From NCBI GenBank assembly GCA_002709295.1, contig PAQL01000001.1, forward strand, positions 1 through 64,000: a stretch of DNA of 64,000 bases, given 5' to 3'. Below are positions 6,901 to 61,031 of this stretch, piece after piece. The stretch's first letter is position 1. The number at the start of each line of letters is the position of its first letter. The translations under genes and the position numbers were made by a program. The stretch comes from Phycisphaerae bacterium (GTDB lineage Bacteria; Planctomycetota; Phycisphaerae; Phycisphaerales; SM1A02). Under the pieces are notes generated by a model that saw only the letters and a list, made by a program, of their open reading frames with translations, did no database searches and had not been told where the DNA came from.

Positions 6901-7853
6901 TCCAGCGAGGTCAGGCCGGCGGAGATCCGGTTGCGCTCCTGGTTGAGCTGGGCGAGCTGGCTCGTGAGCCCGGCCAGTCGCTGGTCGAACTCCGCCGACT
7001 GATCGAGGATGATCGCGACGCGAAGATCTCGACGGCGACCGTCCAGCTCGCGGAAGCGTCGAGCCTTCTCGGCCTGGCCTCGCACGATGCGAAGCCGCCG
7101 TTCGGTGCTGGAGAGCTTCTCCCGGACCTGGACGAGGTTTCGCTCGGCGGCGTCGAGCTTCCTCGCGGCCTCGACCTTCCGCTGTCGGAACTTCGCGACC
7201 CCTGCGGCCTCCTCGAGGATCGAGCGGCGCTCCATGGGGTTGGCCAGCAGCATCGCGTCGACCTTGCCCTGCTCGATGATCGAGTAGGCGTTGGTGCCCA
7301 CGCCGGTGTCGAGGAAGAGTTCCTTGATGTCGCGAAGCCGGCAGCGTCGGGCGTTGATCAGATACTCGCTCCGGCCGTCGGCATAGAGCCGACGCGTCAC
7401 GCCGACCTCGTCGCTGTCGACGGGGAGACGTCGATCCCGGACCCGGGTCCGATCGACCACGGCGTTGTCGCCGGTGGCCAGGGCGAGTTCCTCGTCCGTG
7501 CCGCCGAAGGCGTCGTTCTCGACCGTGTCCTCGGGGAGGATGCTGGACGGATCGGTGTCCGCCGGCGTCTCGGGACGTGGCGTGGCGAGGCGGGGATTCT
7601 CGAAGGTGAGCGTGACCTCCGCCATGCCCATCGGCTTCCGGGCCACGCTGCCGGCGAAGATCACGTCCTGCATCGCGGAGCCACGGAGGCTCTTGGCGCT
7701 CCGCTCTCCGAGGACCCACTTCACGGCATCGACGACGTTGCTCTTGCCGCAGCCATTGGGACCGACGACGCCGATGATGGGCTCGTCGAAGTCGAACTCC
7801 GTCCGGTCTGCGAAGCTCTTGAACCCCGAGAGGGTCAGTCTGGCAAGTCTCAC
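3912..7853 (-). CDS. smc: Chromosome segregation protein SMC
   Basis: Walker [21 protein letters not shown], long coiled coils, central hinge, C-terminal [18 protein letters not shown] and [18 protein letters not shown]; 1313 aa. Confidence 0.97.
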
Positions 7854-7941
7854 TGCTACGACCTCCTGTCGTCAGTCGCCGGGCATCCCTGCCCGGCATG
7901 ATGCGAGAATCGGATGCAGAACGTCATGCTGGAATCCAACC

Positions 7942-9765
7942 TCACCGTGGCACAGTATGGCGGCCAGGGCGGGCTCGATCAACCGCCTCCAGGCCATCGG
8001 GCTCCTCGTCCTCGTCGATCTCGATCAGATCGGACTCGAACTCCGGCCGCTCCTCCTCCTCCTCGGTCTCCCGGGCCATGAGGATGGCGGAGAGGACACG
8101 GTCCTGTTCGGCCTTGAAATCCGCCGGAATGAACCCGGCCCGCCAGAGCTGATGGATCGCCCCGATGGTCTCGCCGTAGCTGAGGCCGATGCCCGGAGCG
8201 GGGGCCTCGATGGTGCTCTGGTGGCCCATGTAGGCGATGAGCTCGGCCACCTCGGGAGAGACCATGTCGGTCTGAGGCGGGATCCCGTCGGCCTCCCGGA
8301 AGAAGATCTCCAGCTCCTCGTTGCCGGCATCGGCCTTGATGAGCAGCCGGTCGGTCCAGGCCTCGAGGAACATGGGGCGTTCGACCTCGAGGATCTTGCC
8401 GAAGAGGACGATCCGGGGCTCCCCGGTCTGAGCCACGTAGATCATCGGGGATTCGCTGGGCACGAGATTGAGCGTGAACTTCTCGTCGATGTCGTAGGCG
8501 AGCACGATCGGGTCGCGACGACGCTCCAGAGCCTCGAAGATCGCCAGCCTCACATTGACGTCCTCGTGGTCCAGAAGGGGCCTCAGGCCCACTTCGATGG
8601 CGGGATTGGCCCCCATGTCGGAGAGCAGGGCGATGGCTGCCAGCTGGGCCGTGGGACTGCCGTTCTCAGCCAGATCGATCAGATCGGCGGTGCAGGCGGC
8701 GTCGTCGAGCATCGCCCCGGCGGTGAGAGCCGCCAGGCGCGGCCCCTCCTCCGGGTAGTCGTAGAGATCCTGGAGCACGGGAATGGCCTTGGGGCCGACG
8801 GACTGCCACCGCCATCGTGCGACCTTGGCGTATCCGGGATTCGCGAGCACCGAGCGCTTGATCGCCAGGGCGATCGATTCAGCGGCCTCGGGGCGCAGGG
8901 CGGTGTGCTTGATCAGTTCGACGAACTCGTCGGTGTTCTCGTGGAAGCTCGGCGGCACCACGATCTGGATCTCGTCGCCGCTTCGACCGCGGGCGGTCTC
9001 GTCCGGCTGGCCGGGCTCCCGGGGGTATCTGGAGTTGATCGCGTTCTGAATGCGGGCGGCCCGACTGTGGCTGGTCACCGCCATCCGAAGCTTGAGCGGC
9101 ATCGACTCGGTGATCGTCCCGCCATCGAGGATCCGGCCGGTCAATCGGTCCACGATGTCACGGCCGCTGCCGTCGGGGGTGGCGAAGGGATTGATGAAGA
9201 TCGGCCCCTTGGCGGAGGCAAGGGCGCTGGCCTGACGCGATCCGGTCTGCAGGGCACCGGGTCGCAGATCGGCGGTGTAGAGCCGGCCTCCCTCGAGGCT
9301 CGTGGTGCTCGTCCCGGGAGCCGAATAGACCCGGACGTCGAAATGCTGGTCCTCCACCCCTCCGGGCGGAATGACGCCCTCGACGATCACCACCGCGGTG
9401 TCCTCGGAGTTGAGCATCGCTTCCGGCGTGACGTCGCCGAAGCCGGTCGCGGCGTTGCCGACCCCTCGCCGGGCCATCTCCTGGATCATCCAGCTTCGGA
9501 CCGGCGCGGGCATGTCCCGGCTTCCCGTCCCACGAAGGCCGACCACCAGCCCGTATCCCCTGACCACGGTCGGGGCGTCGCCGACGAAGACGGCCTCGCT
9601 GGCGATCGTGCCACGCATGATCGGCTGGATGTCGATCTCGAAGTTTCGCCGTTCAAGAGTGGTGGCGGACTCCTTGCGATCGGCTCGCTCGACCATGTCG
9701 CACCCCGTGATCGCGGTGAACAGCATGGCCGCGAGCGGGAGGGAGAGGAGGTGTGAACTGGCCAT
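7942..9765 (-). CDS. FlgI (flagellar P-ring)-like lipoprotein with C-terminal HEAT-like region
   Basis: Lipobox-like LFTAITGC; VVRGYGLVVGLRGTGSRD and FINPF segments resemble FlgI; Ala/Leu-rich helical repeats (PRLAALTAGAMLDDAACTADLIDLAENG...) resemble HEAT repeats. Confidence 0.65.
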   Translation of the reverse strand: MASSHLLSLPLAAMLFTAITGCDMVERADRKESATTLERRNFEIDIQPIMRGTIASEAVFVGDAPTVVRGYGLVVGLRGTGSRDMPAPVRSWMIQEMARRGVGNAATGFGDVTPEAMLNSEDTAVVIVEGVIPPGGVEDQHFDVRVYSAPGTSTTSLEGGRLYTADLRPGALQTGSRQASALASAKGPIFINPFATPDGSGRDIVDRLTGRILDGGTITESMPLKLRMAVTSHSRAARIQNAINSRYPREPGQPDETARGRSGDEIQIVVPPSFHENTDEFVELIKHTALRPEAAESIALAIKRSVLANPGYAKVARWRWQSVGPKAIPVLQDLYDYPEEGPRLAALTAGAMLDDAACTADLIDLAENGSPTAQLAAIALLSDMGANPAIEVGLRPLLDHEDVNVRLAIFEALERRRDPIVLAYDIDEKFTLNLVPSESPMIYVAQTGEPRIVLFGKILEVERPMFLEAWTDRLLIKADAGNEELEIFFREADGIPPQTDMVSPEVAELIAYMGHQSTIEAPAPGIGLSYGETIGAIHQLWRAGFIPADFKAEQDRVLSAILMARETEEEEERPEFESDLIEIDEDEEPDGLEAVDRARPGRHTVPR

Positions 9766-9889
9766 TGCGGCGATGCTCCAGACAGGGGGGGTTGGAGCAT
9801 TCTATCTGCCGGATGGGGTCCGGCTCCAGTGGCCCGGAGGGGCTCGGATGGGGGTCCCGGAAGGGATCGAAACGGGGTGAGGCGCAGTA

Positions 9890-10057
9890 TCAGGAGGCCG
9901 ACTGGCGAGCCAGGCGATCCCGGACTCTCAGAGCCACCAGGAGGGTGGCGACCACGGTGGCGGTGACGGCGGCAGCCGTCAGGTCGGCGGTCAGTTCAGG
10001 AGTCATCTGGGCCAGGGTCGGGCAGGCGTTCAGGACGGTGGTGGCGGGGGTGGTCAT
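9890..10057 (-). CDS. Small single-TM protein (55 aa)
   Basis: MTTPATTVLNACPTLAQMTPELTADLTAAAVTATVVATLLVALRVRDRLARQSAS; GAGGAG Shine-Dalgarno-like sequence just upstream of the ATG. Confidence 0.4.
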   Translation of the reverse strand: MTTPATTVLNACPTLAQMTPELTADLTAAAVTATVVATLLVALRVRDRLARQSAS

Positions 10058-10413
10058 GGGTCGTCTCCTCGAGTGTTCCGGCCGAATCGGGGTGATCTCA
10101 CACCAACCGGCTTCATCTCCGGGTAGACGCCGGATCACGGCTTGTGACGGGCTTCGGATGATTTCGCCTCAGGAAGACCGCAATCCCCCTCCCTGGGGCC
10201 TGAGACAGGAATGACGGCCACTGACCGGTCCCCTCGATCCGGGAGATCCGGATCCGGAATCCGACTCCGATCTCCGGCTGGGCGAGCCGTCTGGTGATCG
10301 GCTTGCCCGCTTCGAGCGGTGCCGGGAGGCCGAGGAGCCTGGTCTGCCGGGCTGCGAGTGCGGATGGAACCCACCATCGTCTTCCCGAGCGATCCGAGGG
10401 GTACGCTTCTCTT

Positions 10414-13400
10414 GTGAGTGCTTCCAGACGTCGACGACGGGGACGAGCCCGTGCTGATGGCCAGCCGCTGCCTTCCCGGGAGCTGGCGGGATTGCGGGAG
10501 CGGATCGTCCGGTCGGATGGCGGTTGGACGGCATCGATGCTTCGACGCGTGGGCGGCATCGAACGGGCCGCCTCCTCGGGACGGGACATGTCGCGGGCGA
10601 CGGAGGCGATCCGACGCGAACTCACGAAGCTGGAGAACGATCGGGAGTCCCGACGCGAGAGGCCCTTCGACATCGAATACCCCGCGGAACTTCCGGTCAG
10701 CGGGGCGAGGGAGGAGATCGCCCGGGCGATCCGGGAGCACCAGGTGGTCGTGGTCTGCGGTGAGACCGGTTCAGGGAAGACCACCCAGATCCCGAAGATC
10801 TGTCTTGATCTGGGAAGGGGGGTCGACGGCCTGATCGGACACACCCAGCCCCGCCGTGTCGCGGCCCGGACCGTGGCCACCCGGATCGCCGACGAACTGG
10901 GCACGACGCTCGGGGAGGGCGTCGGTTACTCCGTCCGATTCAACGATCGCACCACGCCGCAGACGCGGGTGAAGCTGATGACCGACGGCATCCTGCTCGC
11001 CGAGACCGCCCGCGATCGTGATCTGCTCGCCTACGACACCATCATCATCGACGAGGCGCATGAACGAAGCCTCAACATCGACTTCCTGCTGGGCTATCTG
11101 AAGAGACTGCTCCCACGACGCCGTGATCTCCGGCTCATCGTCACCAGCGCCACGATCGATCCGGACCGGTTCAGCCGCCACTTCGGCGACGCTCCGGTCG
11201 TCCGGGTGTCGGGCCGGACCCATCCGGTCGAGATCAGATACCGACCTCCAGCGGGCGAGGATGCCGACGACGCCCTGGTCCGGGGGATCGTCGACGCGGT
11301 CGGGGAGATCGATGCCGCCGGACTCGAGGTTCCCGATCCCTCCGGTCTCCCCGACATCCTGGTGTTCCTGCCCGGGGAACGGGAGATCCGAGAGGCGTCC
11401 GAGGCCCTTGCGAAGGCCGAGCTTCCGGACACCGAGGTGGTACCCCTCTTCGCGAGGCTGTCGGTCGACAAGCAGGACCGGGTCTTCTCGCCGGGATCGG
11501 CTCGACGCATCGTGCTGGCGACCAACGTCGCCGAGACCTCGCTTACCGTTCCTCGCATTCGTGGCGTCGTGGACACCGGGCTGGCGAGAATCGCCCGCTA
11601 TTCCCCTCGGCGGCGGGTTCAGCGTCTGCCCGTGGAACCGATCGCCCGTGCGTCGGCCGATCAGCGTTCGGGACGGTGCGGCCGCATCGCACCCGGGGTC
11701 TGCATCCGACTCTTCGCGGAAGATGACCTCCGCGGCCGCGACGAGTTCACGCCTCCCGAGATCCTCCGTTCAAGTCTGGCCAGTGTGATTCTCCGGATGA
11801 CCGACCTGGGTCTCGGAGATCCGGAGACCTTCCCCTTCGTCGAGAAGCCCTCCGGCCGCCTGATACGCGACGGATACGAGACGCTCTACGAACTCGGAGC
11901 GGTCGATCGTCGTCGGGAACCGACCGCCCTCGGTCGCGATCTGGCCAGACTCCCCATCGACCCGAGGATCGGGCGCATGGTGCTGGCGGGCATCGACGAG
12001 GAGTGCCTGCCCGAGCTGCTGGTGATCGCCTCGGTGCTCACCGCGTCCGATCCGCGCGAACGCCAGGGAGACCGGGCCGGTTCGATCGCCGACGCGATGT
12101 TCAAGGATCCGAGCAGCGACTTCCTCTCCTTTCTGAGGATCTGGAAGGCGTGGACCGACGCTCGGGAGACCAGGGGATCCTCGGCTCTGAGAACCTGGAC
12201 CCGCCGACATGGCCTGTCCCTGGTCCGGATGCGGGAGTGGCAGGACCTGCACGACCAGCTCCGACATCTTGCCGGAGATCTCCTCGCCCGACGATCATCG
12301 CAGGGTCGGAAGGGACGAGGACGTCCGGTGGTCGGACCGGTGAGGGAGGATCCGCCCGGCGGCGCGATCCACCGGGCGATCCTCGCAGGGCTGGTGTCCA
12401 ACATCGGTCGTCGAGGGGAGCGTGGCGAGTACCGCGGCCTCATGGGTGGCACCTTCGAGATCTTCCCCGGCAGCGTGCTGCGACGACAGGACGCTCCCTG
12501 GATCGTCGCTGCGGAGATCGTGGAGACGTCTCGCCGCTGGGCCCGGACCTGCGCAAGGATCCGGGGCGACTGGATCGAGCGAGTGGCCCCGCATCTGGTT
12601 CGCAAGTCCCATTTCGAACCGCACTTCGTGCCCGAGACCGGATTCGTCTCCGCCTGGGAGCGGGTCACCTGTGGTGACCTCGATGCGGTGGAACGACGCC
12701 GGGTTCCGTATGCGCCGATCGATGCGGCCGCGGCCCGGGAGGTCTTCATCCAGCAGGCTCTGGTCGCGGAGGGGCTGAAGACCGACGCCCCATGGATGGA
12801 TGAGAACCGACGACTTCGCGAAGGTCTGGCGAGGCTTTCGGATCGCGAACGGGACGTGGTGCCGGTCGACGAGGACGATCGCCTCCATCGCTTCTACGAC
12901 TCGCGACTACCGGAAGGGATTCACAACGTCCCCGCATTCGAGGCCTGGCGACGGAAGGCCGAGCGGAGGGACCCATCGATCCTGCGGATGAAGGAGAGCG
13001 ATCTCACCGATCAAGACCGCGAACGGCCGGATGCCGCCGCCTACCCGGATCGAATCGCCATCGGTGGAGTCGACGTCGGTCTCGCCTACCGTCATGAACC
13101 CGGGGACGACCGCGACGGCGTCACCGCCACGATCCCCCTCGAACTGCTGGGGCGTTTCGAACCGGCATCGTTCGAATGGCTCGTTCCCGGCCTGCTGATC
13201 GACAAGCTCGATGCTCTCGCCCGCAGTCTGCCGCGACGAATGCGCACGAGAATCATGCCCATCCTCGAGACCGCGACCGGAGCGGCGGAGCATCTACCGT
13301 TCGGCGAAGGGTCCCTCATCCGGGCCTACGCCGGGTACCTCTCGATGGTCGGAGGCGCCGAGATCCGTCCCGAGGACTTCCGGCTCGAGTTGCTCGAGCC

Positions 13401-14442: not shown

Positions 14443-17400
14443 TCACCGGGCGCTTCGCGACTCCATCGCCCGTCCCGCAGCGACCAGGTACGCCTCGCTC
14501 GGAAGCGCCCAGGGACGGAACTTCTCGATCGTGCCTCGCTCGTCGCTGTAGAGCAGCCCTCGATTGGCCCCGAGCATCGATGCGGCGGGGGAGTCGATGA
14601 GGGTGCTGGAGTCGGTGGCTCCGACCTGGAACATCGCCCGCTGATCGAAGGCCCGCATCGTCTGGCGATCCACGGACCGTTCCAGGGTCGACACCGTGTC
14701 CGCCCAGACGAGGGTGTGGATGCCGTGTTCGGGCCCCTCGCGAAGGATCTCCCCGAACACCCGGTCCGGAGTCGGTGGCCCCTCGTCGGTGGAGAATCCG
14801 AAGTCGTCCTCGGCTCGACGCAGGATCCGGAAGCGCTGGAGCCCGTGCACCATCAGCAGGATCGTCGAACCGTTGGTGTCGCCCTCCTCGATCCGGCGGG
14901 CGAGTTCGGCTCCGATCTCCAGAACGGCATCGCCGGAACCTCGGAAATCCGGCTGGTCGATCCGGTGGGGCAGATGGCCGGCCACCGATTCGAGGAATCC
15001 CGCATTCGGATCGTCCGCCGTGGTGCCGTCGAGCACGACGCATCGCAGATCGTCGGTCCGGTGTGCCGCGCAGGCCGCGATCAGCATCGCGGAGCTGATC
15101 GCCAGCGAGGGTTCGTCCTGTTGTCCGACCAGAACGAGGTTGGATCCGGCCTGCCGTCGAAGGGTCGCGGAGGTCGGATCCTTGATCGCCACCGCGTCTC
15201 CGAGCCAGAGCGGGATCGACGTGGGACGGGTGGCGGGATCGGTCTCGATCATGGTGCGCAGCGGCCGGTTCTCGGCGAGGATCGCCGGAGCGTTCCCCTC
15301 GAAGACCACGCAGGATCCCCGTTCGATTCCACGCTCCTCGGCAAGCTCGGCCACTCTGGAGAGGTACCGCTCCCGGGTCTCGTCGGGAAGCCAGCAGACC
15401 TGGAATGGACTGTTGCCCTCCACCAGTCCGCCCTGGTCGTTGTAGATCGCCTCGCCGGGACGGGACAGCAGTCGGGCGGCGACGTTGTCGTCGGAGAGGA
15501 TGAGCATCGAATCCTGCTCGTTGCACGCCAGCGCGATCCGCACGCCCATCTGGCCCATCGTGGAGCGATTCAGGGAATAGGCGCCGCCGAGGGTCTGGGA
15601 TCCGAGCAGCACGTGCATGCCGAAGGCCCGACCCTGCCGCACGAGTCGATCCAGCAGCAGCGATGCGTCCTGGCTCACCTTGTCGTCATCGACGAAGAGC
15701 TCCTGGAACTCGTCGATGACCAGCACCACCCGCGGCATCGGATCGTCCGGTCGTCGGGACCGCCAGCCCGCGAGGTCCTGCACGCCCTCGGCCCGGAACA
15801 TCTCGCCGCGTTCGGAGAGTTCCGCATCCAGCCCCTGAAGCACGGACAGCCCGAACTCGCGATCGCTCTCGACCGCGACGGACCGGGCGTGAGGGAGTCG
15901 ATGGGTCGCGTAGGTCTTGAACTCGACGCCCTTCTTGAAGTCGACGAGGTGGAACTCGACCTCGTCGGGAGAGTGCCAGCAGGCGAGGTTGGTGATCAGG
16001 GCGTGAAGCAGCGTCGACTTGCCGGAACCGGTCTTGCCCGCGACCAGGGCATGCTGGGCGGTTCCGACCCCGAGCACGAGCTCCTGAAGACGGGTCGCTC
16101 CCGCCCGGCCGAGGGCGACATGGACGTCGCGGGTGGTGGATCGGGTCCAGAACTCGTCGTCGGATGGAGCGATCGTCTCGAAGGGCACCTCCACCCGTCC
16201 GGCATCCCGGGCGGCTCGGCCGACCTGGTGGGCGAATGAGATCAGCAGATCGTCATCGGGCCCCGGATCCGGAGCGAAGGCAAGGTCCTCGAGACCGTCG
16301 GTGTCGAAGATCATGCGGCCTTCGTCGGAGCGGATCATCACCGCGTGCCTCTCGAGGTCGGTGATGTCGAACTTCTCGGGGACCTCCGCCCGCCGATCTC
16401 GGAGGACGATGGTGAAGACGCCGCACCGCGGTCCGCTCTGCAGGATGCTGGCAAGCCGTCTCGCCGATTCCTCGGTGAAATTCGCGGGGAAGTCGGCGAT
16501 CACCAGGAATCGATACGGCTCAGCGATCTCTCCGGCGGCCTCGTTGTACGCGTCGATGGTGGGAAACTCGTTGCGGAGATACTTCTGGATCACCGTCTCC
16601 ATGTGCTCGGTGATGTCAACGAGCCGCTGTTCGATCTGCCGGGATTCGGTCCAGATCCGATCCCCGACCATGCCGGGAAGCTCGTCCTCCAGGTGCATGA
16701 AGCCGGCGAAGTTCTGGCCCAGGCCGATCGGATCGAAGATGCTGAAACGGGCCTTGCCCGGGGGGACCGAGGCCAGCAGCCGCATCATGATGCCGCGAAG
16801 AAGATCCAGTCCGGTCTCACGGTGATCCGGATCGACATCCAGCACGAGGCTTGCCCTTGAAGGCAGGGAGATCACCGCGGGGATGTCGATCACGTCCTCG
16901 TGCTCGAGCTGCAGACGCGGGTCGGTCGGGACGCCGCCCTCGATCCGGGTCCGGTCGAACTTCAGATTCCCGACACGGATGGCGGGAGGCGGTGCGGACG
17001 CGGGGGTCCATGACCGCCATGCCGGATCGGTGAAGGGAGGGAATGCCGTCCGCATGTCCTCGCAATGGTCTCCGAGAGCGCCGAGATGGCGATCTATCCC
17101 GGCGTGCCATCGGGACTCCAGGTCCTGCCAGTCGCGGGCCGCCTCCTCCTCGATGGTGCGTTCGGCTTCGGCATGACGATCCTGCTCCTCCTGCAGCGCC
17201 TCGCGATGGGTTCGCTCGATCGCCTCGGTCACCTCGACGATCTCGGCGTTCGCGGCCTTGATCTGCTCCTCACGGATCGAATCGGTCTGGGCGAGCTTGA
17301 TGGGAAGACGTCGTTCGATCTCCGCGAGCTTGACCCTGGCCTTCTCCTTCGCAAGGTCCCCGATCGGTTCGAATCGGGTCCGGGCCTGTTTCAGATCCCG

Positions 17401-18357
17401 ATCCCGGGTCTCGGCCAGAGCCTGTTCCTGTTCGGCTCGTCGGACCCGGCCCGCCTCCTCGGCGATTTCGGCCGCGAAGCGGGCCAGCTGGGCGGCGCGG
17501 TCGTACGGCCTCCATGCCGCCACCACCTCCCGCCTCGCCACGATGTACAGCACGAAGAAGACCAGAAGGAACACTCCCAGTCCGACCGAGGCGCCTACCC
17601 CGACGGGACCGGATTCGGTTGATGAGAACATCGCTCCCAGGCCCGCCCCCGCACCGATGAAGAACGCGGCGGGAAGCACGAAGATCGGACCGCGGAAGAG
17701 CCGGGGAAGTCTGAGTCTGCGAAAGGATTCCGCGGCGGCGGATGCCTCTCCGAAGGTTCGTCTCATGACCTGCAGGGGAGCGAGCTGCGCCTCGCTGCGG
17801 TCCTGATGGTCGAGCTCGATCGCCCGAGGCCTGGGCTGTCGATATCGCCTGGTCTCCCTGATCATCCGGAGATCGAGCTCGTCGAAGTCGGCCATGGTGT
17901 TGCCGATCTCGGTGCGAAGCTTGTCGAGATCCTCCCGTGGCCGGGTCTCGTTGGCCTCGAAGACCGTCTCGGCAAGCCAGGTCGCCTCCTCGAGCGCGGT
18001 TCGAGCGGCCTCCTTGTTGCTGGCGAATCGTCGACGGATCCGAATCCGCATGTCCTCGGCCTGCTTCTCCAGATCCGATCGGGTCGACTCCCAGGTCCGC
18101 TCGGCGGAATCGATCGCGTCCTGATGACGGAGCTCGGCGGCGGCCAGATCATTGGTCCGCGTCTCGTCGATCCGGTTCGATTCCGAACGGTGCCGTTCGG
18201 ATTCCTCCCTGACCCGGGTCTCGAGAGCTCGGCGATGCTCTTCGGCGGCCTCGGTGGTCTCCTTCGTCAGACGATCGGCGGCATGACGCACCTCCGCGAT
18301 CTCGGCGAGGAGATCCGGCGAAACGGGGCCTGGTTCGCGTTCACGGGACTCGGGCAT
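14443..18357 (-). CDS. FtsK/SpoIIIE-domain membrane ATPase (EssC/EccC-like)
   Basis: N-terminal coiled coil, two TM segments (PIFVLPAAFFIGAGAGLGAMF; VGLGVFLLVFFVLYIVA), Walker A VAGKTGSGKSTLLHALI, VDFKKGVEFKTYA, Walker B RVVLVIDEFQELF; flanking degenerate ATPase-like modules. Confidence 0.8.
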   Translation of the reverse strand: MPESREREPGPVSPDLLAEIAEVRHAADRLTKETTEAAEEHRRALETRVREESERHRSESNRIDETRTNDLAAAELRHQDAIDSAERTWESTRSDLEKQAEDMRIRIRRRFASNKEAARTALEEATWLAETVFEANETRPREDLDKLRTEIGNTMADFDELDLRMIRETRRYRQPRPRAIELDHQDRSEAQLAPLQVMRRTFGEASAAAESFRRLRLPRLFRGPIFVLPAAFFIGAGAGLGAMFSSTESGPVGVGASVGLGVFLLVFFVLYIVARREVVAAWRPYDRAAQLARFAAEIAEEAGRVRRAEQEQALAETRDRDLKQARTRFEPIGDLAKEKARVKLAEIERRLPIKLAQTDSIREEQIKAANAEIVEVTEAIERTHREALQEEQDRHAEAERTIEEEAARDWQDLESRWHAGIDRHLGALGDHCEDMRTAFPPFTDPAWRSWTPASAPPPAIRVGNLKFDRTRIEGGVPTDPRLQLEHEDVIDIPAVISLPSRASLVLDVDPDHRETGLDLLRGIMMRLLASVPPGKARFSIFDPIGLGQNFAGFMHLEDELPGMVGDRIWTESRQIEQRLVDITEHMETVIQKYLRNEFPTIDAYNEAAGEIAEPYRFLVIADFPANFTEESARRLASILQSGPRCGVFTIVLRDRRAEVPEKFDITDLERHAVMIRSDEGRMIFDTDGLEDLAFAPDPGPDDDLLISFAHQVGRAARDAGRVEVPFETIAPSDDEFWTRSTTRDVHVALGRAGATRLQELVLGVGTAQHALVAGKTGSGKSTLLHALITNLACWHSPDEVEFHLVDFKKGVEFKTYATHRLPHARSVAVESDREFGLSVLQGLDAELSERGEMFRAEGVQDLAGWRSRRPDDPMPRVVLVIDEFQELFVDDDKVSQDASLLLDRLVRQGRAFGMHVLLGSQTLGGAYSLNRSTMGQMGVRIALACNEQDSMLILSDDNVAARLLSRPGEAIYNDQGGLVEGNSPFQVCWLPDETRERYLSRVAELAEERGIERGSCVVFEGNAPAILAENRPLRTMIETDPATRPTSIPLWLGDAVAIKDPTSATLRRQAGSNLVLVGQQDEPSLAISSAMLIAACAAHRTDDLRCVVLDGTTADDPNAGFLESVAGHLPHRIDQPDFRGSGDAVLEIGAELARRIEEGDTNGSTILLMVHGLQRFRILRRAEDDFGFSTDEGPPTPDRVFGEILREGPEHGIHTLVWADTVSTLERSVDRQTMRAFDQRAMFQVGATDSSTLIDSPAASMLGANRGLLYSDERGTIEKFRPWALPSEAYLVAAGRAMESRSAR

Positions 18358-18360
18358 CGG

Positions 18361-18579
18361 TCAGCGGTCTCCACATTCCCTGCGGGCCTGGCCGATCATC
18401 GACTCGATCTTCTCCATCGCACCAACCGTGGATCTGATCCGCAGTTCGATGGGGGCGAGGCGACGTCGCTCGAACGCCTGGGAGACCGGGTCCCTCCATC
18501 GTTCGTTGGTGCGTCCCCATGCGATCATGAGATCACGGAACTCTCCATGGATTCTCAAACGGGCCGAGGTCATGCTCAC
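18361..18579 (-). CDS. Small hypothetical protein (72 aa) in WXG/FtsK operon
   Basis: GTG start overlapping the upstream stop by 4 bp (GTGA); ends 3 bp before the FtsK-like start region. Confidence 0.65.
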   Translation of the reverse strand: MSMTSARLRIHGEFRDLMIAWGRTNERWRDPVSQAFERRRLAPIELRIRSTVGAMEKIESMIGQARRECGDR

Positions 18580-19223
18580 GGGGCGGGCTCCTGTCGGTCC
18601 TTGGACGGGACCGTTCCGGTCTCCTCTTCGTCGGGTTCGTCCTCGCTCGCCGGAACCTCCATCGTCGCCGAGGCGGTGCGCCGGGTGCTCTCCGCCTCGT
18701 CCTCGGTCGGCCCGAGGAGCCGTGCGAGTTCCGGGGCCGGCATGGAGGTGTAGGCCTCGAGATTCTCGCTCATCTTCCGGAGGAGGCCGATCGCGTGGGG
18801 AAGATCGTGGTCGAGGGCGGTGGCCAGGGGGGAGACCGCCGCCTTGTACAGGGTGCGTTCACGGTCCAGACGGCGAATCCAGGTGCGGGTCGCCTCGAGT
18901 CCTCGTCGGGCCTCCTCGAGGTGCCTTTCGGCCCGCTGGAGGTTCTTCCGCTCGTCGGAGTCACCGGCTCGTCCTCCCTTGGCGGAGGTCTGCATCTGCT
19001 TCCGGTAGAGCTCGCTCCTGGCCCGGGTGAGGAGCTCCTGCCGCTTTCGTATCTGGCGGTTCCAGTGCCCGATCCGGTCGCGATCGAGCCAGAGGATGGT
19101 CTTCTCCAGATCCGATTCGGCCTCGAGCAGGGCGGCGCGGCCGGCATCGACGAAACCCGCCAGAGTGGCGCGAAAGGCATCGATGACCTCGATCGATCGG
19201 ACGTCGGCTCGTTCGTTGCTCAT
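18576..19223 (-). CDS. Predicted coiled-coil protein (215 aa) in WXG/FtsK operon
   Basis: Intact ORF between the WXG-like gene and the 72-aa gene; helical Arg/Glu-rich composition with acidic tail. Confidence 0.7.
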   Translation of the reverse strand: MSNERADVRSIEVIDAFRATLAGFVDAGRAALLEAESDLEKTILWLDRDRIGHWNRQIRKRQELLTRARSELYRKQMQTSAKGGRAGDSDERKNLQRAERHLEEARRGLEATRTWIRRLDRERTLYKAAVSPLATALDHDLPHAIGLLRKMSENLEAYTSMPAPELARLLGPTEDEAESTRRTASATMEVPASEDEPDEEETGTVPSKDRQEPAP

Positions 19224-19241
19224 GGGAGTCCGGACAGCGGG

Positions 19242-19514
19242 TCACCGCTGCTGCAGGTAGTCCTCGATTCTCTGAGCCTTTCGGAGCAGGAATGGGATGT
19301 GGACCTCCGAGGCCTTCATGAAGCGTTGAAGGGTCTTCATGGTGGCGTCGAACTCCTCTTCGAATTTCGCCTGTTCCTGGTCGCGCCAGGACTGGGCGAG
19401 CGTGCCCATGCGGGCCTGCATGGTCTGCATCTGCCCCTGGATCTCGTTGTTGAATCGCTTCAGATCGTGGGCGAAGCGACGAATCTCCCCGGGGTCGGCG
19501 ACGGCCTTGGCCAT
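19242..19514 (-). CDS. WXG100-like small helical protein (90 aa)
   Basis: MAKAVADPGEIRRFAHDLKRFNNEIQGQMQTMQARMGTLAQSWRDQEQAKFEEEFDATMKTLQRF...: helix - SWRDxxxxxFxxxF turn - helix, about 90 aa, no signal peptide, as in WXG100 proteins; next to an FtsK/SpoIIIE ATPase. Confidence 0.65.
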   Translation of the reverse strand: MAKAVADPGEIRRFAHDLKRFNNEIQGQMQTMQARMGTLAQSWRDQEQAKFEEEFDATMKTLQRFMKASEVHIPFLLRKAQRIEDYLQQR

Positions 19515-58718: not shown

Positions 58719-61031
58719 TCAGGGGGTGTCGCAGGGACCCCACTGGACCAGGAGATCACCGACGTCGGCACCACCGACGACACCGTCGCCGTTGAGATCC
58801 TCCGGGCATCCCGGGCAGTCGCCCCAGGCCACCAGCAGGAAGCCGTAGTCGGCACCATCGACATCACCGTCGCCGTTGAAGTCGGCCGGGCAGCCGCCTC
58901 CACCGCCGCCGCAGTCGGTTCCGGAGCACGACACGTCGAGCGTGGCGGATCCGAATCCGGTGGTGCTGTAGCTGCCGACCCGCACGTAGTAGACGGAGTT
59001 GCAGTCCGCCGAGAAGCTGACCTCGGAGACCAGACCGCAGGTGTCGTCGTTGCAGGCGACCACCGAACCGGTGCAGGAATCCTGGTACACCGCCATCTTG
59101 GTGTCGAAGGTGGCATCATTGACCGTGCAGAAGGACATGGTGACCAGGCCCTCGCAGGACGGCACGTATCGGTACCAGAGGTCGTTGTTGATCTGGTCGT
59201 TGCCGAACTTGGCACATTCCGGCGGCAGGACCTGACCGGAGTTGGTCGCACCGAACGTGTCGATCACGATCGGACCGTCGACGATGTCGATGGCCCCCTC
59301 GCACTCGTCGTTCGACGGCGGCTCGGGGCCGCCGCCACCTTCGCCGATGGTCATGGTCGCGGTGCCCTGGCTGCCGTCCCAGGAACCGATCTGGATGATG
59401 ATCTCCTGACCGGCGACCAGCGCCGGCAGCGACATCAGCGATGAGAAACCTGCACAACCGTCACCATCGTCGTTGCAGGCGATGAGGACGCCGCCGCAGG
59501 AGTCGTAGGCGGCCAGACGGGTGTCGAAGCTCGCCTGGTTGCAGGTCGAGACCGACCAGTCGCCGTCGGACGGGACGGTCCAGCTGTAGAAGAGGTCGTT
59601 GAAGATCGTGACCGATCCGAAGCTGTCGCACTCGAAGGGCAGATCGGCACCGTCGGTGCCGGTGCAGGCGGTGTCGACCTCGACGTCGCCCTCGAAGGAT
59701 CCGAGCGCGATGGCGTCGGAGCAGACGTCGCCGACGATCTCGTCGGCCGGCTCTGCGGTCAGGGCCACCTGGTAGAGGTTGAGCGGCCCGCTGCCGCAGG
59801 GCACGCCGTCGAAGCCGTTGAGGCCCACGAAGGCGTAGTAGTCGCCTGCGGGGAGACAGGCGGTGACGCTCCCGCCGCATTCCACGGCCTCGCCGATGAC
59901 CAGGCTCGGCTCGGGGCACTCCTTGCTCACGAAGAGCAGGACGGTCGAGACGTTGCTGTTGCAGGTCATGGTGACGAACGAGGTGGCGTCGATCGAGAAG
60001 TCGAACCAGTCGGTGTCGCGGGTTCCACCGGCGGCCCACATCGTGCCGCAGATGGTGTCACCGATGTTCACGGGCTGGGAGGGGTAGCCGACGCCGTTGC
60101 AGCCGCCGTTGGTGTCGTCGCCGCAGCCCTCGAGCTCGACGACGTCCTCCTTGGAGCATTCGGAGAGGCATCCGGCCAGGCAGTCGTCACCCTCGCAGAT
60201 GGTGAGGTTGCCGGTGCCCTGGGCCGGGGGGTTGAACCCGCCGAGCTGGATGAAGTAGGTCTTGCCGGCCTCGACCGAGGCGACCATCTCCGAGGTGAAT
60301 CCGGCACAGCCGAGTCCGTCGTCGTTGCAGGCCTCGAAGACGAGGTTGTCGCAGTCCCCGCTCCAGAGGGCCAGACGCGTGTCGAAGTCGGCGTCGTTGC
60401 AGGTCGAGAACACCGCGATCTCGTTGGTGCTCGCGGTCCAGGTGTACCAGATGTCGCCGCGGATCACGATTTCGCCGAAGCTCTCGCATTCCGGGGGAAG
60501 CTGGATGTCGCCGGTGCTCGCGCCGAGGCTGTCGAAGGCGACCACCAGGTCGCCGGTGCCCAGGTCGATCGCATCGACGCACTCGTCGTTCTCGGGCGGC
60601 TCGCCATCGAAGCAGGCGACCGCGGTCTCGCTGACGCAGATCGAGTCCCAGGCGACGTCGCAGCAGTAGGGGTCGATCTTGCAGACCGAGTTGCAGCAGT
60701 CGAGGTCATCGCACCCGGGGGTGCCGTTGGGGACGTCGCAGCCGCCGGAGGCGGGGTCGCCGCATCCGGAATCTCCGCCGCACAGAGTGAGGGCCAGATC
60801 GACGCAGGTCGAATCCCATTCCACCTCGCAGCAGAACGAGTCGAAGCTGCTGCAGACCGATTCGCAGCAGGTCTCGTCGACGCAGCCCGGCGTGCCGTTG
60901 GCCTCGAGACAGCTGCCCGATGCAGGGTCGCCGCACGAGGGGAATTCATCTCCGGCGATGACGGAACCGGCGAGGATGAGCGTGGTGGCCAGGGTCATCC
61001 CGCCGCCAAGCAGGGTGTTACGTCGAATCAT
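58719..61031 (-). CDS. Secreted Cys-rich repeat / PPC-like domain protein with C-terminal dockerin-like EF-hand pair
   Basis: Two N-terminal NGTPGCxDxxCC repeats, then repeated modules ending in STCNxADFDTRLAxW...CNDDGxGCAGF; C-terminal DFNGDGDVDGADYGFLLVAWGDC...DLNGDGVVGGADVGDLLVQWGPC. Confidence 0.75.
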   Translation of the reverse strand: MIRRNTLLGGGMTLATTLILAGSVIAGDEFPSCGDPASGSCLEANGTPGCVDETCCESVCSSFDSFCCEVEWDSTCVDLALTLCGGDSGCGDPASGGCDVPNGTPGCDDLDCCNSVCKIDPYCCDVAWDSICVSETAVACFDGEPPENDECVDAIDLGTGDLVVAFDSLGASTGDIQLPPECESFGEIVIRGDIWYTWTASTNEIAVFSTCNDADFDTRLALWSGDCDNLVFEACNDDGLGCAGFTSEMVASVEAGKTYFIQLGGFNPPAQGTGNLTICEGDDCLAGCLSECSKEDVVELEGCGDDTNGGCNGVGYPSQPVNIGDTICGTMWAAGGTRDTDWFDFSIDATSFVTMTCNSNVSTVLLFVSKECPEPSLVIGEAVECGGSVTACLPAGDYYAFVGLNGFDGVPCGSGPLNLYQVALTAEPADEIVGDVCSDAIALGSFEGDVEVDTACTGTDGADLPFECDSFGSVTIFNDLFYSWTVPSDGDWSVSTCNQASFDTRLAAYDSCGGVLIACNDDGDGCAGFSSLMSLPALVAGQEIIIQIGSWDGSQGTATMTIGEGGGGPEPPSNDECEGAIDIVDGPIVIDTFGATNSGQVLPPECAKFGNDQINNDLWYRYVPSCEGLVTMSFCTVNDATFDTKMAVYQDSCTGSVVACNDDTCGLVSEVSFSADCNSVYYVRVGSYSTTGFGSATLDVSCSGTDCGGGGGGCPADFNGDGDVDGADYGFLLVAWGDCPGCPEDLNGDGVVGGADVGDLLVQWGPCDTP

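What the first reader, a model, noticed from the sequence alone, without database searches (positions are those of the whole stretch)
14443..19514. Minimal WXG100-like + FtsK/SpoIIIE ATPase operon: candidate type VII secretion-like system
A tight four-gene minus-strand cluster: a 90-aa helical protein with an SWRDxxxxxFxxxF turn (WXG100-like), a 215-aa coiled-coil protein, a 72-aa protein (4-bp GTGA overlap) and a 1304-aa membrane FtsK/SpoIIIE ATPase. In known ESX/T7SSb systems (established knowledge) a WXG100 substrate and an EssC/EccC FtsK-type ATPase are the two universal parts. None of EccB/D/E, MycP, EsaA, EssA, EssB or EsaB is recognisable in the window. If real, this would be a reduced or divergent T7SS-like locus in a diderm, dockerin-rich lineage. 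The link to secretion is inference.
Basis: partly seen in the sequence, partly recalled or inferred. Interest (0 to 1): 0.75.

Follow-up and report, generated by a model that had tools for sequence, protein, structure and literature searches.

The report
Four-gene Esx-like export operon, Planctomycetota
A planctomycete genome carries a compact four-gene unit (two small Esx-type proteins, a long helical-hairpin protein and a membrane-anchored motor protein related to the engine of type VII secretion) that has been inherited across its phylum for a long time and may be a pared-down protein exporter without toxins, a version of a system known until now only from brief computational notes.

Summary
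On the minus strand lie a 90-aa WXG100 protein (PF06013, above its cut-off), a 215-aa helical-hairpin protein (CC), a 72-aa protein (S72) and a 1304-aa ATPase. The four genes form a self-contained unit. WXG100 and ATPase co-occur in 49 of 345 Planctomycetota genomes (one has only the ATPase, three only a WXG100 hit), even where unlinked, and the ATPase tree follows host families. The outline is already published: PMC3482391 notes planctomycete WXG proteins with a three-domain ATPase active only in the middle; PMC11090510 describes relatives with nuclease cargo. New here: the membrane anchor, vertical inheritance, absence of toxin domains (16 of 112 CC proteins carry a long C-terminal extension, Imm33-like where tested) and the four-part set. 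Likely function: ATP-driven export of an Esx-type helical complex across the inner membrane; secretion itself is inferred. New variant of a known kind.

The parts
19242..19514 (-). WXG100-superfamily protein, 90 aa, W43-x-D45 turn, no YxxxD/E tail
   Evidence: PF06013 E 5.6e-10, above gathering score; profile hits HP0062 1.8e-12 and EsxB 2.5e-10 in PDB; W-x-D invariant in 44 homologues, YxxxD/E in 0
18576..19223 (-). CC: 215-aa long helical hairpin (helices 9-77 and 89-160) plus acidic disordered tail; sits in the effector slot of related cassettes
   Evidence: AlphaFold2 pLDDT 87; found upstream of the ATPase in 59 of 80 relatives' loci; long C-terminal extension, Imm33-like where tested, in 16 of 112 homologues
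18361..18579 (-). S72: 72-aa short Esx-like hairpin, W28-x-D30 invariant, Cys69 near-invariant
   Evidence: profile search of PDB gives EsxA (2vrz) first and mostly WXG100-type proteins among the top six; hhalign with the WXG100 profile 78%; alignment
14443..18357 (-). EccC/EssC-like ATPase, 1304 aa: N-terminal coiled coil about 1-220, TM hairpin 225-274, coiled coil about 275-430, D0 (degenerate), D1 (active), D2 (degenerate)
17536..17685 (-). predicted transmembrane hairpin of the ATPase (residues 225-274)
   Evidence: hydropathy; at least one TM segment at this place in 26 of 26 Planctomycetota homologues
16003..16056 (-). D1 Walker A region of the ATPase (residues 768-785, QHALVAGKTGSGKSTLLH)
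   Evidence: GKTGSGKS at least 90% conserved in 57 homologues; Walker B DEFQ (residues 882-885) invariant

Best explanation
The operon is a stand-alone type VII-like (EssC/EccC-type) protein translocation unit of Planctomycetota. The ATPase is tethered to the inner membrane by a two-helix hairpin set within a long coiled coil, and carries one working motor domain (D1) between two catalytically dead ones (D0, D2). The 90-aa WXG100 protein and the 72-aa Esx-like protein are helical-hairpin partners that bundle with the long-hairpin CC protein, as Lap1 and Lap2 bundle with LXG effectors. The ATPase docks this bundle, assembles into hexamers and drives it across the inner membrane in an ATP-dependent way, delivering the CC and/or WXG100 proteins to the periplasm or cell envelope. 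Shown by computation: the families, the domain plan, conserved order, co-occurrence, lineage and long vertical inheritance. Inferred: the complex, hexamerisation, export and destination.
For: WXG100 membership. S72 as a second Esx-like protein. ATPase closest to EccC/EssC by profile and fold, with only D1 keeping Walker motifs. TM segment in all 26 Planctomycetota ATPases examined. Near-perfect co-occurrence of WXG100 and ATPase (49 genomes with both, 1 ATPase only, 3 WXG only of 345; Fisher 1e-54), including 5 genomes where the genes lie far apart on one contig and 12 where they lie on different contigs. Four-gene order in most loci with no other conserved neighbour, so these four look like the whole linked set. 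In a related Helicobacter plasmid cassette the second gene is a coiled coil fused to a WHH nuclease toxin followed by a SUKH immunity gene, which marks the CC slot as the cargo slot. The LXG-Lap1-Lap2 pre-secretion complex gives an experimental precedent (PMC9600955).
Against: No secretion data were found for any member of this lineage. The mobile relatives' ATPases mostly lack TM helices, and PMC11090510 suggests a different mechanism for them. The known export signals (W-x-G, YxxxD/E) are absent. No EsaB/YukD was found in the genome, nor any recognisable pore or outer-membrane component near the locus. The CC protein shows no significant sequence or fold similarity to a secreted T7SS substrate.
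Confidence: 0.58

Rival explanations
1. Non-secretory machine. A membrane-tethered ATPase works on cytoplasmic or envelope targets as a stress or defence device, with the Esx-like and CC proteins as regulators or sensors, as proposed for its relatives inside CoCoNuT and TerY-P operons.
For: Close relatives sit in a vWA/CARF/PP2C/kinase operon (Caballeronia) and next to Hsp70/GrpE or TerD genes. PMC11090510 doubts classical secretion for TM-less homologues. No toxin domain and no outer-membrane partner were found.
Against: The Planctomycetota ATPases have gained or kept a TM hairpin. No kinase, phosphatase, vWA or restriction gene is conserved beside them. PADLOC gives only general FtsK-domain matches.
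Confidence: 0.25
2. Domesticated antitoxin device. Descendant of a polymorphic-toxin cassette in which the toxin was replaced by an Imm33-like immunity domain, now protecting the cell against others' toxins.
For: CC occupies the toxin position of the cassettes. Imm33-like PF24719 (E 1.4e-14 to 1e-7 in the three tested) is the only C-terminal fusion recognised; 16 of 112 CC proteins have such a long C-terminal extension.
Against: 96 of 112 CC proteins, the window's included, have no room for such a domain, yet the operon is kept; no Imm33-like domain was found elsewhere in the genome (although no control genome rang in that search).
Confidence: 0.09
3. Degenerate member of classical T7SSa or T7SSb that has lost EccB/D/E or EsaA/EssA/EssB/EsaB.
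For: Shares the two universal parts, WXG100 and an EccC/EssC-type ATPase; the predicted fold matches EccC best.
Against: EccC/EssC models score far below their cut-offs. The D1 tree places it with WXG100-FtsK cassettes, apart from T7SSa/b. The domain plan differs (only the middle of three domains active). No YukD in the genome.
Confidence: 0.04
4. DNA translocase or conjugative coupling protein with incidental small neighbours.
For: The motor domain belongs to the FtsK/HerA superfamily; TcpA and FtsK are secondary matches.
Against: Much weaker matches than to EccC. The genome has its own FtsK. Strict pairing with WXG100 and no conserved relaxase or mating genes nearby.
Confidence: 0.04

Closest known systems
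Solo WXG systems with a YueA-like ATPase of 3 HerA/FtsK domains, only the middle active ('mobile versions of T7SS'; PMC3482391, table footnote)
   Same: WXG plus a three-domain ATPase with only the central domain active; planctomycetes are named there among the hosts
   Different: Here there are four parts, a membrane hairpin, and an ATPase tree that follows host families
[quoted passage not shown] Anantharaman 2012 as cited there)
   Same: Long N-terminal coiled coil, three ATPase domains with the central one active, two WXG100-type proteins, a coiled-coil protein in the cargo slot
   Different: CoCoNuT ATPases are reported to lack TM helices and the coiled coil carries a D-ExK nuclease. Here a TM hairpin is present, with no nuclease and no TerY-P or CoCoNuT genes nearby
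Helicobacter pylori HP0062-HP0066 'WXG100 secretion system' cluster (PMC4978471, PMC3397514)
   Same: WXG100 with a W-R-D turn (best solved relative, 3fx7) and an FtsK/SpoIIIE gene in the cluster, in a diderm
   Different: The H. pylori cluster is reported with a DnaK homologue and an HNH/EndoVII nuclease. Its own ATPase was not examined here (only that of a Helicobacter plasmid was)
T7SSa/T7SSb and T7SSc-j (EccC/EssC/TsxC; PMC11217815)
   Same: WXG100 protein plus a membrane-bound FtsK-type ATPase; EccC is the top fold match
   Different: Those are reported with four NTPase domains and further components; here three domains, none of the other components linked, separate lineage in the tree (T7SSc-j sequences not specifically sampled)
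LXG effector with Lap1 and Lap2 targeting factors (PMC9600955)
   Same: One long helical protein encoded with two small Esx-like hairpins, one with a short first helix
   Different: No toxin domain and no FxxxD motif; analogy only, sequence homology not shown

Membership tests
WXG100 superfamily (90-aa protein) | PF06013 match above curated cut-off | tested here: met
   39.8 bits against 27.3; the narrower TIGR03930 is below its cut-off, 32.9 against 44.85
WXG100 superfamily (90-aa protein) | W-x-G at the turn | tested here: not met
   W-x-D in 44/44, W-x-G in 0/44; HP0062, which also has WRD, is a solved ESAT-6-like hairpin (PMC3397514), so the superfamily tolerates this
WXG100 superfamily (90-aa protein) | helix-turn-helix hairpin forming a dimer | tested here: inconclusive
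   inferred from full-length profile match to solved HP0062 (1.8e-12) and EsxB; not folded here
WXG100 superfamily (S72) | sequence or profile relation to Esx proteins | tested here: met
   EsxA first at E 0.0055 and mostly WXG100-type proteins among the top six PDB profile hits; hhalign 78%; below Pfam detection, so the link is remote
T7SSa/T7SSb secretion system | EccC/EssC ATPase by curated model | tested here: not met
   EccCa 111.8 bits against cut-off 509; EssC 86.6 against 778
T7SSa/T7SSb secretion system | four NTPase domains in the ATPase (PMC11217815) | tested here: not met
   three RecA-like domains, only the middle with Walker motifs
T7SSa/T7SSb secretion system | other core components (EccB/D/E, MycP or EsaA/EssA/EssB/EsaB) | tested here: inconclusive
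   none conserved around the locus; no YukD in the genome; the others not searched genome-wide
T7SSa/T7SSb secretion system | ATP-dependent secretion of WXG100 proteins | not testable with these tools
   needs secretome or localisation experiments
Three-domain WXG100/EssC-like lineage (PMC3482391, PMC11090510) | three FtsK/HerA domains with only the central one active | tested here: met
Three-domain WXG100/EssC-like lineage (PMC3482391, PMC11090510) | two WXG100-type proteins plus a coiled-coil protein | tested here: met
   (both small proteins have W-x-D rather than W-x-G)
Three-domain WXG100/EssC-like lineage (PMC3482391, PMC11090510) | mobile element | tested here: not met
   tree of 62 ATPases needs 15 label changes for 16 groups, the minimum; GC of the operon 0.661 against 0.669 for the window
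Three-domain WXG100/EssC-like lineage (PMC3482391, PMC11090510) | no transmembrane helices, coiled coil fused to nuclease (CoCoNuT form) | tested here: not met
   TM segment in 26/26; no nuclease tail recognised in CC proteins
FtsK DNA translocase | closest relation to FtsK motor domains | tested here: not met
   FtsK 2e-12 against EccC 2.5e-43

The most novel reading that the evidence does not exclude
A complete four-protein, membrane-anchored, toxin-free type VII-like translocon that is a long-inherited cellular function of Planctomycetota and uses two different Esx-type hairpins (both W-x-D) to load a dedicated helical cargo across the inner membrane of a diderm. This would be the smallest functional T7SS and a housekeeping rather than antagonistic one.
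Probability: 0.35. Interest if true: 0.72.

Novelty: new variant of a known kind. Interest (0 to 1): 0.5.

Why it matters
[quoted passage not shown] This locus offers a clean test case: four genes, single copy, membrane-anchored, no toxin domain, stable across a phylum. If it exports, it defines a minimal set for type VII-like transport and shows that two Esx-type proteins, one cargo and one ATPase suffice. If it does not, it shows that the WXG100 plus EssC-type pair is not by itself a sign of secretion, which would affect how such loci are annotated.

Tried and rejected
CC as a WXG100 relative: profile comparison gave 2% probability. CC as a relative of a known secreted protein by sequence or fold: only generic coiled coils, no Foldseek hit below E 0.01. 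CC homology to the N-terminal half of cassette toxins: suggestive only (17.8 bits to a Rhodococcus protein in a search of about 30 sequences), so position rather than sequence carries that argument. Defence system: PADLOC hits are FtsK-domain matches only. Extra conserved neighbours, YukD, Imm33-like domains elsewhere in the genome: none found. Phage origin: phage hits are partial and unannotated; a human-gut contig labelled phage holds a relative. Verrucomicrobiota-wide search could not be centred on loci from genome contigs. S72 and the ATPase N-terminus were not folded (two jobs only; 1200-aa limit). No complex prediction was possible. Anantharaman 2012 is not held in the paper library; Sutcliffe 2011 was seen only as a citation in other papers.
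Full report
WHAT IS THERE. In order of transcription on the minus strand they are a 90-aa WXG100 protein (19242-19514), a 215-aa protein here called CC (18576-19223), a 72-aa protein here called S72 (18361-18579, overlapping CC by GTGA) and a 1304-aa ATPase (14443-18357). A divergent aldehyde dehydrogenase and a convergent HrpA-like helicase bound the unit. Its base composition matches the window. Relatives with named records are mostly Phycisphaerales and other Planctomycetota, so the window is taken to be from that group (inference).

THE WXG100 PROTEIN. It passes the Pfam cut-off for PF06013 (E 5.6e-10). Its best solved relatives are H. pylori HP0062 and EsxB. HP0062 is a solved helical hairpin that dimerises, has WRD in place of WXG, and has an FtsK/SpoIIIE gene in its cluster (PMC3397514). 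In 44 homologues the turn is always W-x-D and the C-terminal YxxxD/E export motif is absent. It is the only WXG100 gene found in this genome.

S72 IS A SECOND ESX-LIKE PROTEIN. Pfam does not see it, but its alignment of 52 homologues has W28 and D30 invariant and W21 and C69 nearly so. Searched against 177,635 distinct PDB sequences, the S72 profile puts S. aureus EsxA first (E 0.0055 and 0.0059), followed among the top six by the S. agalactiae Esx proteins SAG1039 and gbs1074 and by 4lws, which I recall as another WXG100 protein. Profile-profile comparison with the 90-aa family aligns the two turns (78% probability). It looks like an Esx hairpin with a short first helix, a shape also reported for Lap1 proteins (PMC9600955). 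The relation is remote and each single score is modest; the case rests on their agreement.

CC. AlphaFold2 gives one long antiparallel helical hairpin (residues 9-77 and 89-160, pLDDT 87) with a disordered acidic tail. Foldseek finds only generic coiled coils. Among 112 homologues (a few genomes counted twice) the stretch after the conserved hairpin is at most 71 residues in 96 and 149-204 residues in 16. The three long ones scanned hold an Imm33-like domain (PF24719, E 1.4e-14 to 1e-7), and 13 of the 16 share its DSGW motif. No toxin domain was recognised.

THE ATPASE. It has an N-terminal coiled coil, a transmembrane hairpin (225-274), a second coiled coil, and three RecA-like domains. Only the middle one, D1, keeps Walker A and B (GKTGSGKS, DEFQ), while D0 and D2 lack them in the alignment of 57 homologues. 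By profile it is closest to EccC (2.5e-43) and far from FtsK (2e-12). By predicted fold the order is the same (EccC 4.7e-33, EssC 4.7e-21, FtsK 1e-16). In a tree of D1 domains the Planctomycetota form one group (97/98), joined with WXG100-cassette ATPases of Rhodococcus, Caballeronia and Helicobacter plasmids (97/93), apart from T7SSa/b. The placement of FtsK and of the Deinococcus sequence is unsure because of long branches.

CONSERVATION. A clear orthologue of the ATPase is found in 35 of the 37 genomes of the same family, and gene order holds in most loci examined (54 of 80 loci have all four, many others being cut at contig ends). No further gene is conserved nearby. Across 345 genomes of the phylum, 49 have both WXG100 and ATPase, 1 only the ATPase and 3 only a WXG100 hit (Fisher 1e-54, not corrected for relatedness). 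In 32 the two genes are adjacent, in 5 they lie far apart on one contig, and in 12 on different contigs, some of which may be assembly breaks. In several split genomes WXG100, CC and S72 stay together away from the ATPase, and in one the split is WXG100+CC and S72+ATPase. The tree of 62 ATPases needs 15 changes for 16 groups, the minimum possible, so transfer between families has been rare.

RELATIVES WITH CARGO. On a Helicobacter plasmid the order is WXG100, coiled coil fused to a WHH nuclease, SUKH immunity gene, 77-aa gene, ATPase. On a Caballeronia plasmid it is vWA, WXG100, a 436-aa protein, 113 aa, 76 aa, ATPase, then CARF, vWA, phosphatase and kinase genes. The cassette ATPases show no clear membrane hairpin (at most one weak hydrophobic stretch), while a Deinococcus and a second Rhodococcus cassette encode a separate small coiled-coil protein with a C-terminal tail anchor. 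The membrane anchor is therefore perhaps a movable part, fused into the ATPase in Planctomycetota (inference).

HOW IT PROBABLY WORKS. The best reading is ATP-driven export of a helical complex of CC with the two Esx-like proteins across the inner membrane, by analogy with EccC/EssC systems and with LXG-Lap1-Lap2 pre-secretion complexes (PMC9600955). What is shown is the identity and conservation of the parts. The complex, the direction of movement and the destination are inferred. The main rival is a non-secretory machine like that suspected for TM-less homologues in CoCoNuT operons (PMC11090510).

WHAT IS KNOWN. [quoted passage not shown] PMC11090510 describes the same set within CoCoNuT operons and cites Anantharaman 2012 for its occurrence as a stand-alone system. 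PMC4978471 calls the H. [quoted passage not shown] PMC10765036 notes that such Gram-negative loci have not been confirmed functionally. What is added here is the four-part anatomy with S72 as an Esx-like protein, the membrane hairpin, the toxin-free CC with occasional Imm33-like fusion, the strict pairing of parts even when unlinked, and the evidence for vertical inheritance.

LIMITS. HMM E-values refer to small sets of sequences. The ATPase was folded from residue 430 onward only. S72 and the 90-aa protein were not folded. Transmembrane segments rest on hydropathy alone. Genome sampling includes incomplete assemblies. No experiment on any member of this lineage was found in the papers held.

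Noticed in passing
window 18361-18579 and homologues: S72 carries a near-invariant cysteine close to its C-terminus (C69; 47 of 52 homologues have Cys in the last six residues), with a Cys at a similar place in the Deinococcus and Caballeronia counterparts; the window's WXG100 and CC proteins have no cysteine. Role unknown.
   Followed up: partly
L014, L021, L022, L024, L110, L135, L145, L159, L171, L193-L195, L206, L207: CC proteins with a long C-terminal extension, Imm33-like where scanned: a polymorphic-toxin immunity domain fused to a helical hairpin in the cargo position.
   Followed up: partly
window 7942-9765 (-): 607-aa protein with a FlgI (flagellar P-ring) domain (E 5.7e-21) followed by a weak HEAT-repeat match.
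   Followed up: no
L217 (MT836827.1, human gut contig labelled phage): Contig with what looks like an E1-like (ThiF-type) protein, a long three-domain ATPase relative and a 351-aa ORF whose N-terminus matches the S72 profile (E 7e-5), possibly an Esx-type effector.
   Followed up: partly
L098 (G208), ATPase 7066-11754: Planctomycetota ATPase with about 100 extra residues in the C-terminal (D2) part.
   Followed up: no
window 58719-61031 (-): 770-aa protein with a T9SS-associated galactose-binding-like domain (PF23759, E 2.7e-14).
   Followed up: no
L169 (PBMH01000006.1): Contig filed as Alphaproteobacteria that carries the planctomycete-type operon; probably a binning error.
   Followed up: no
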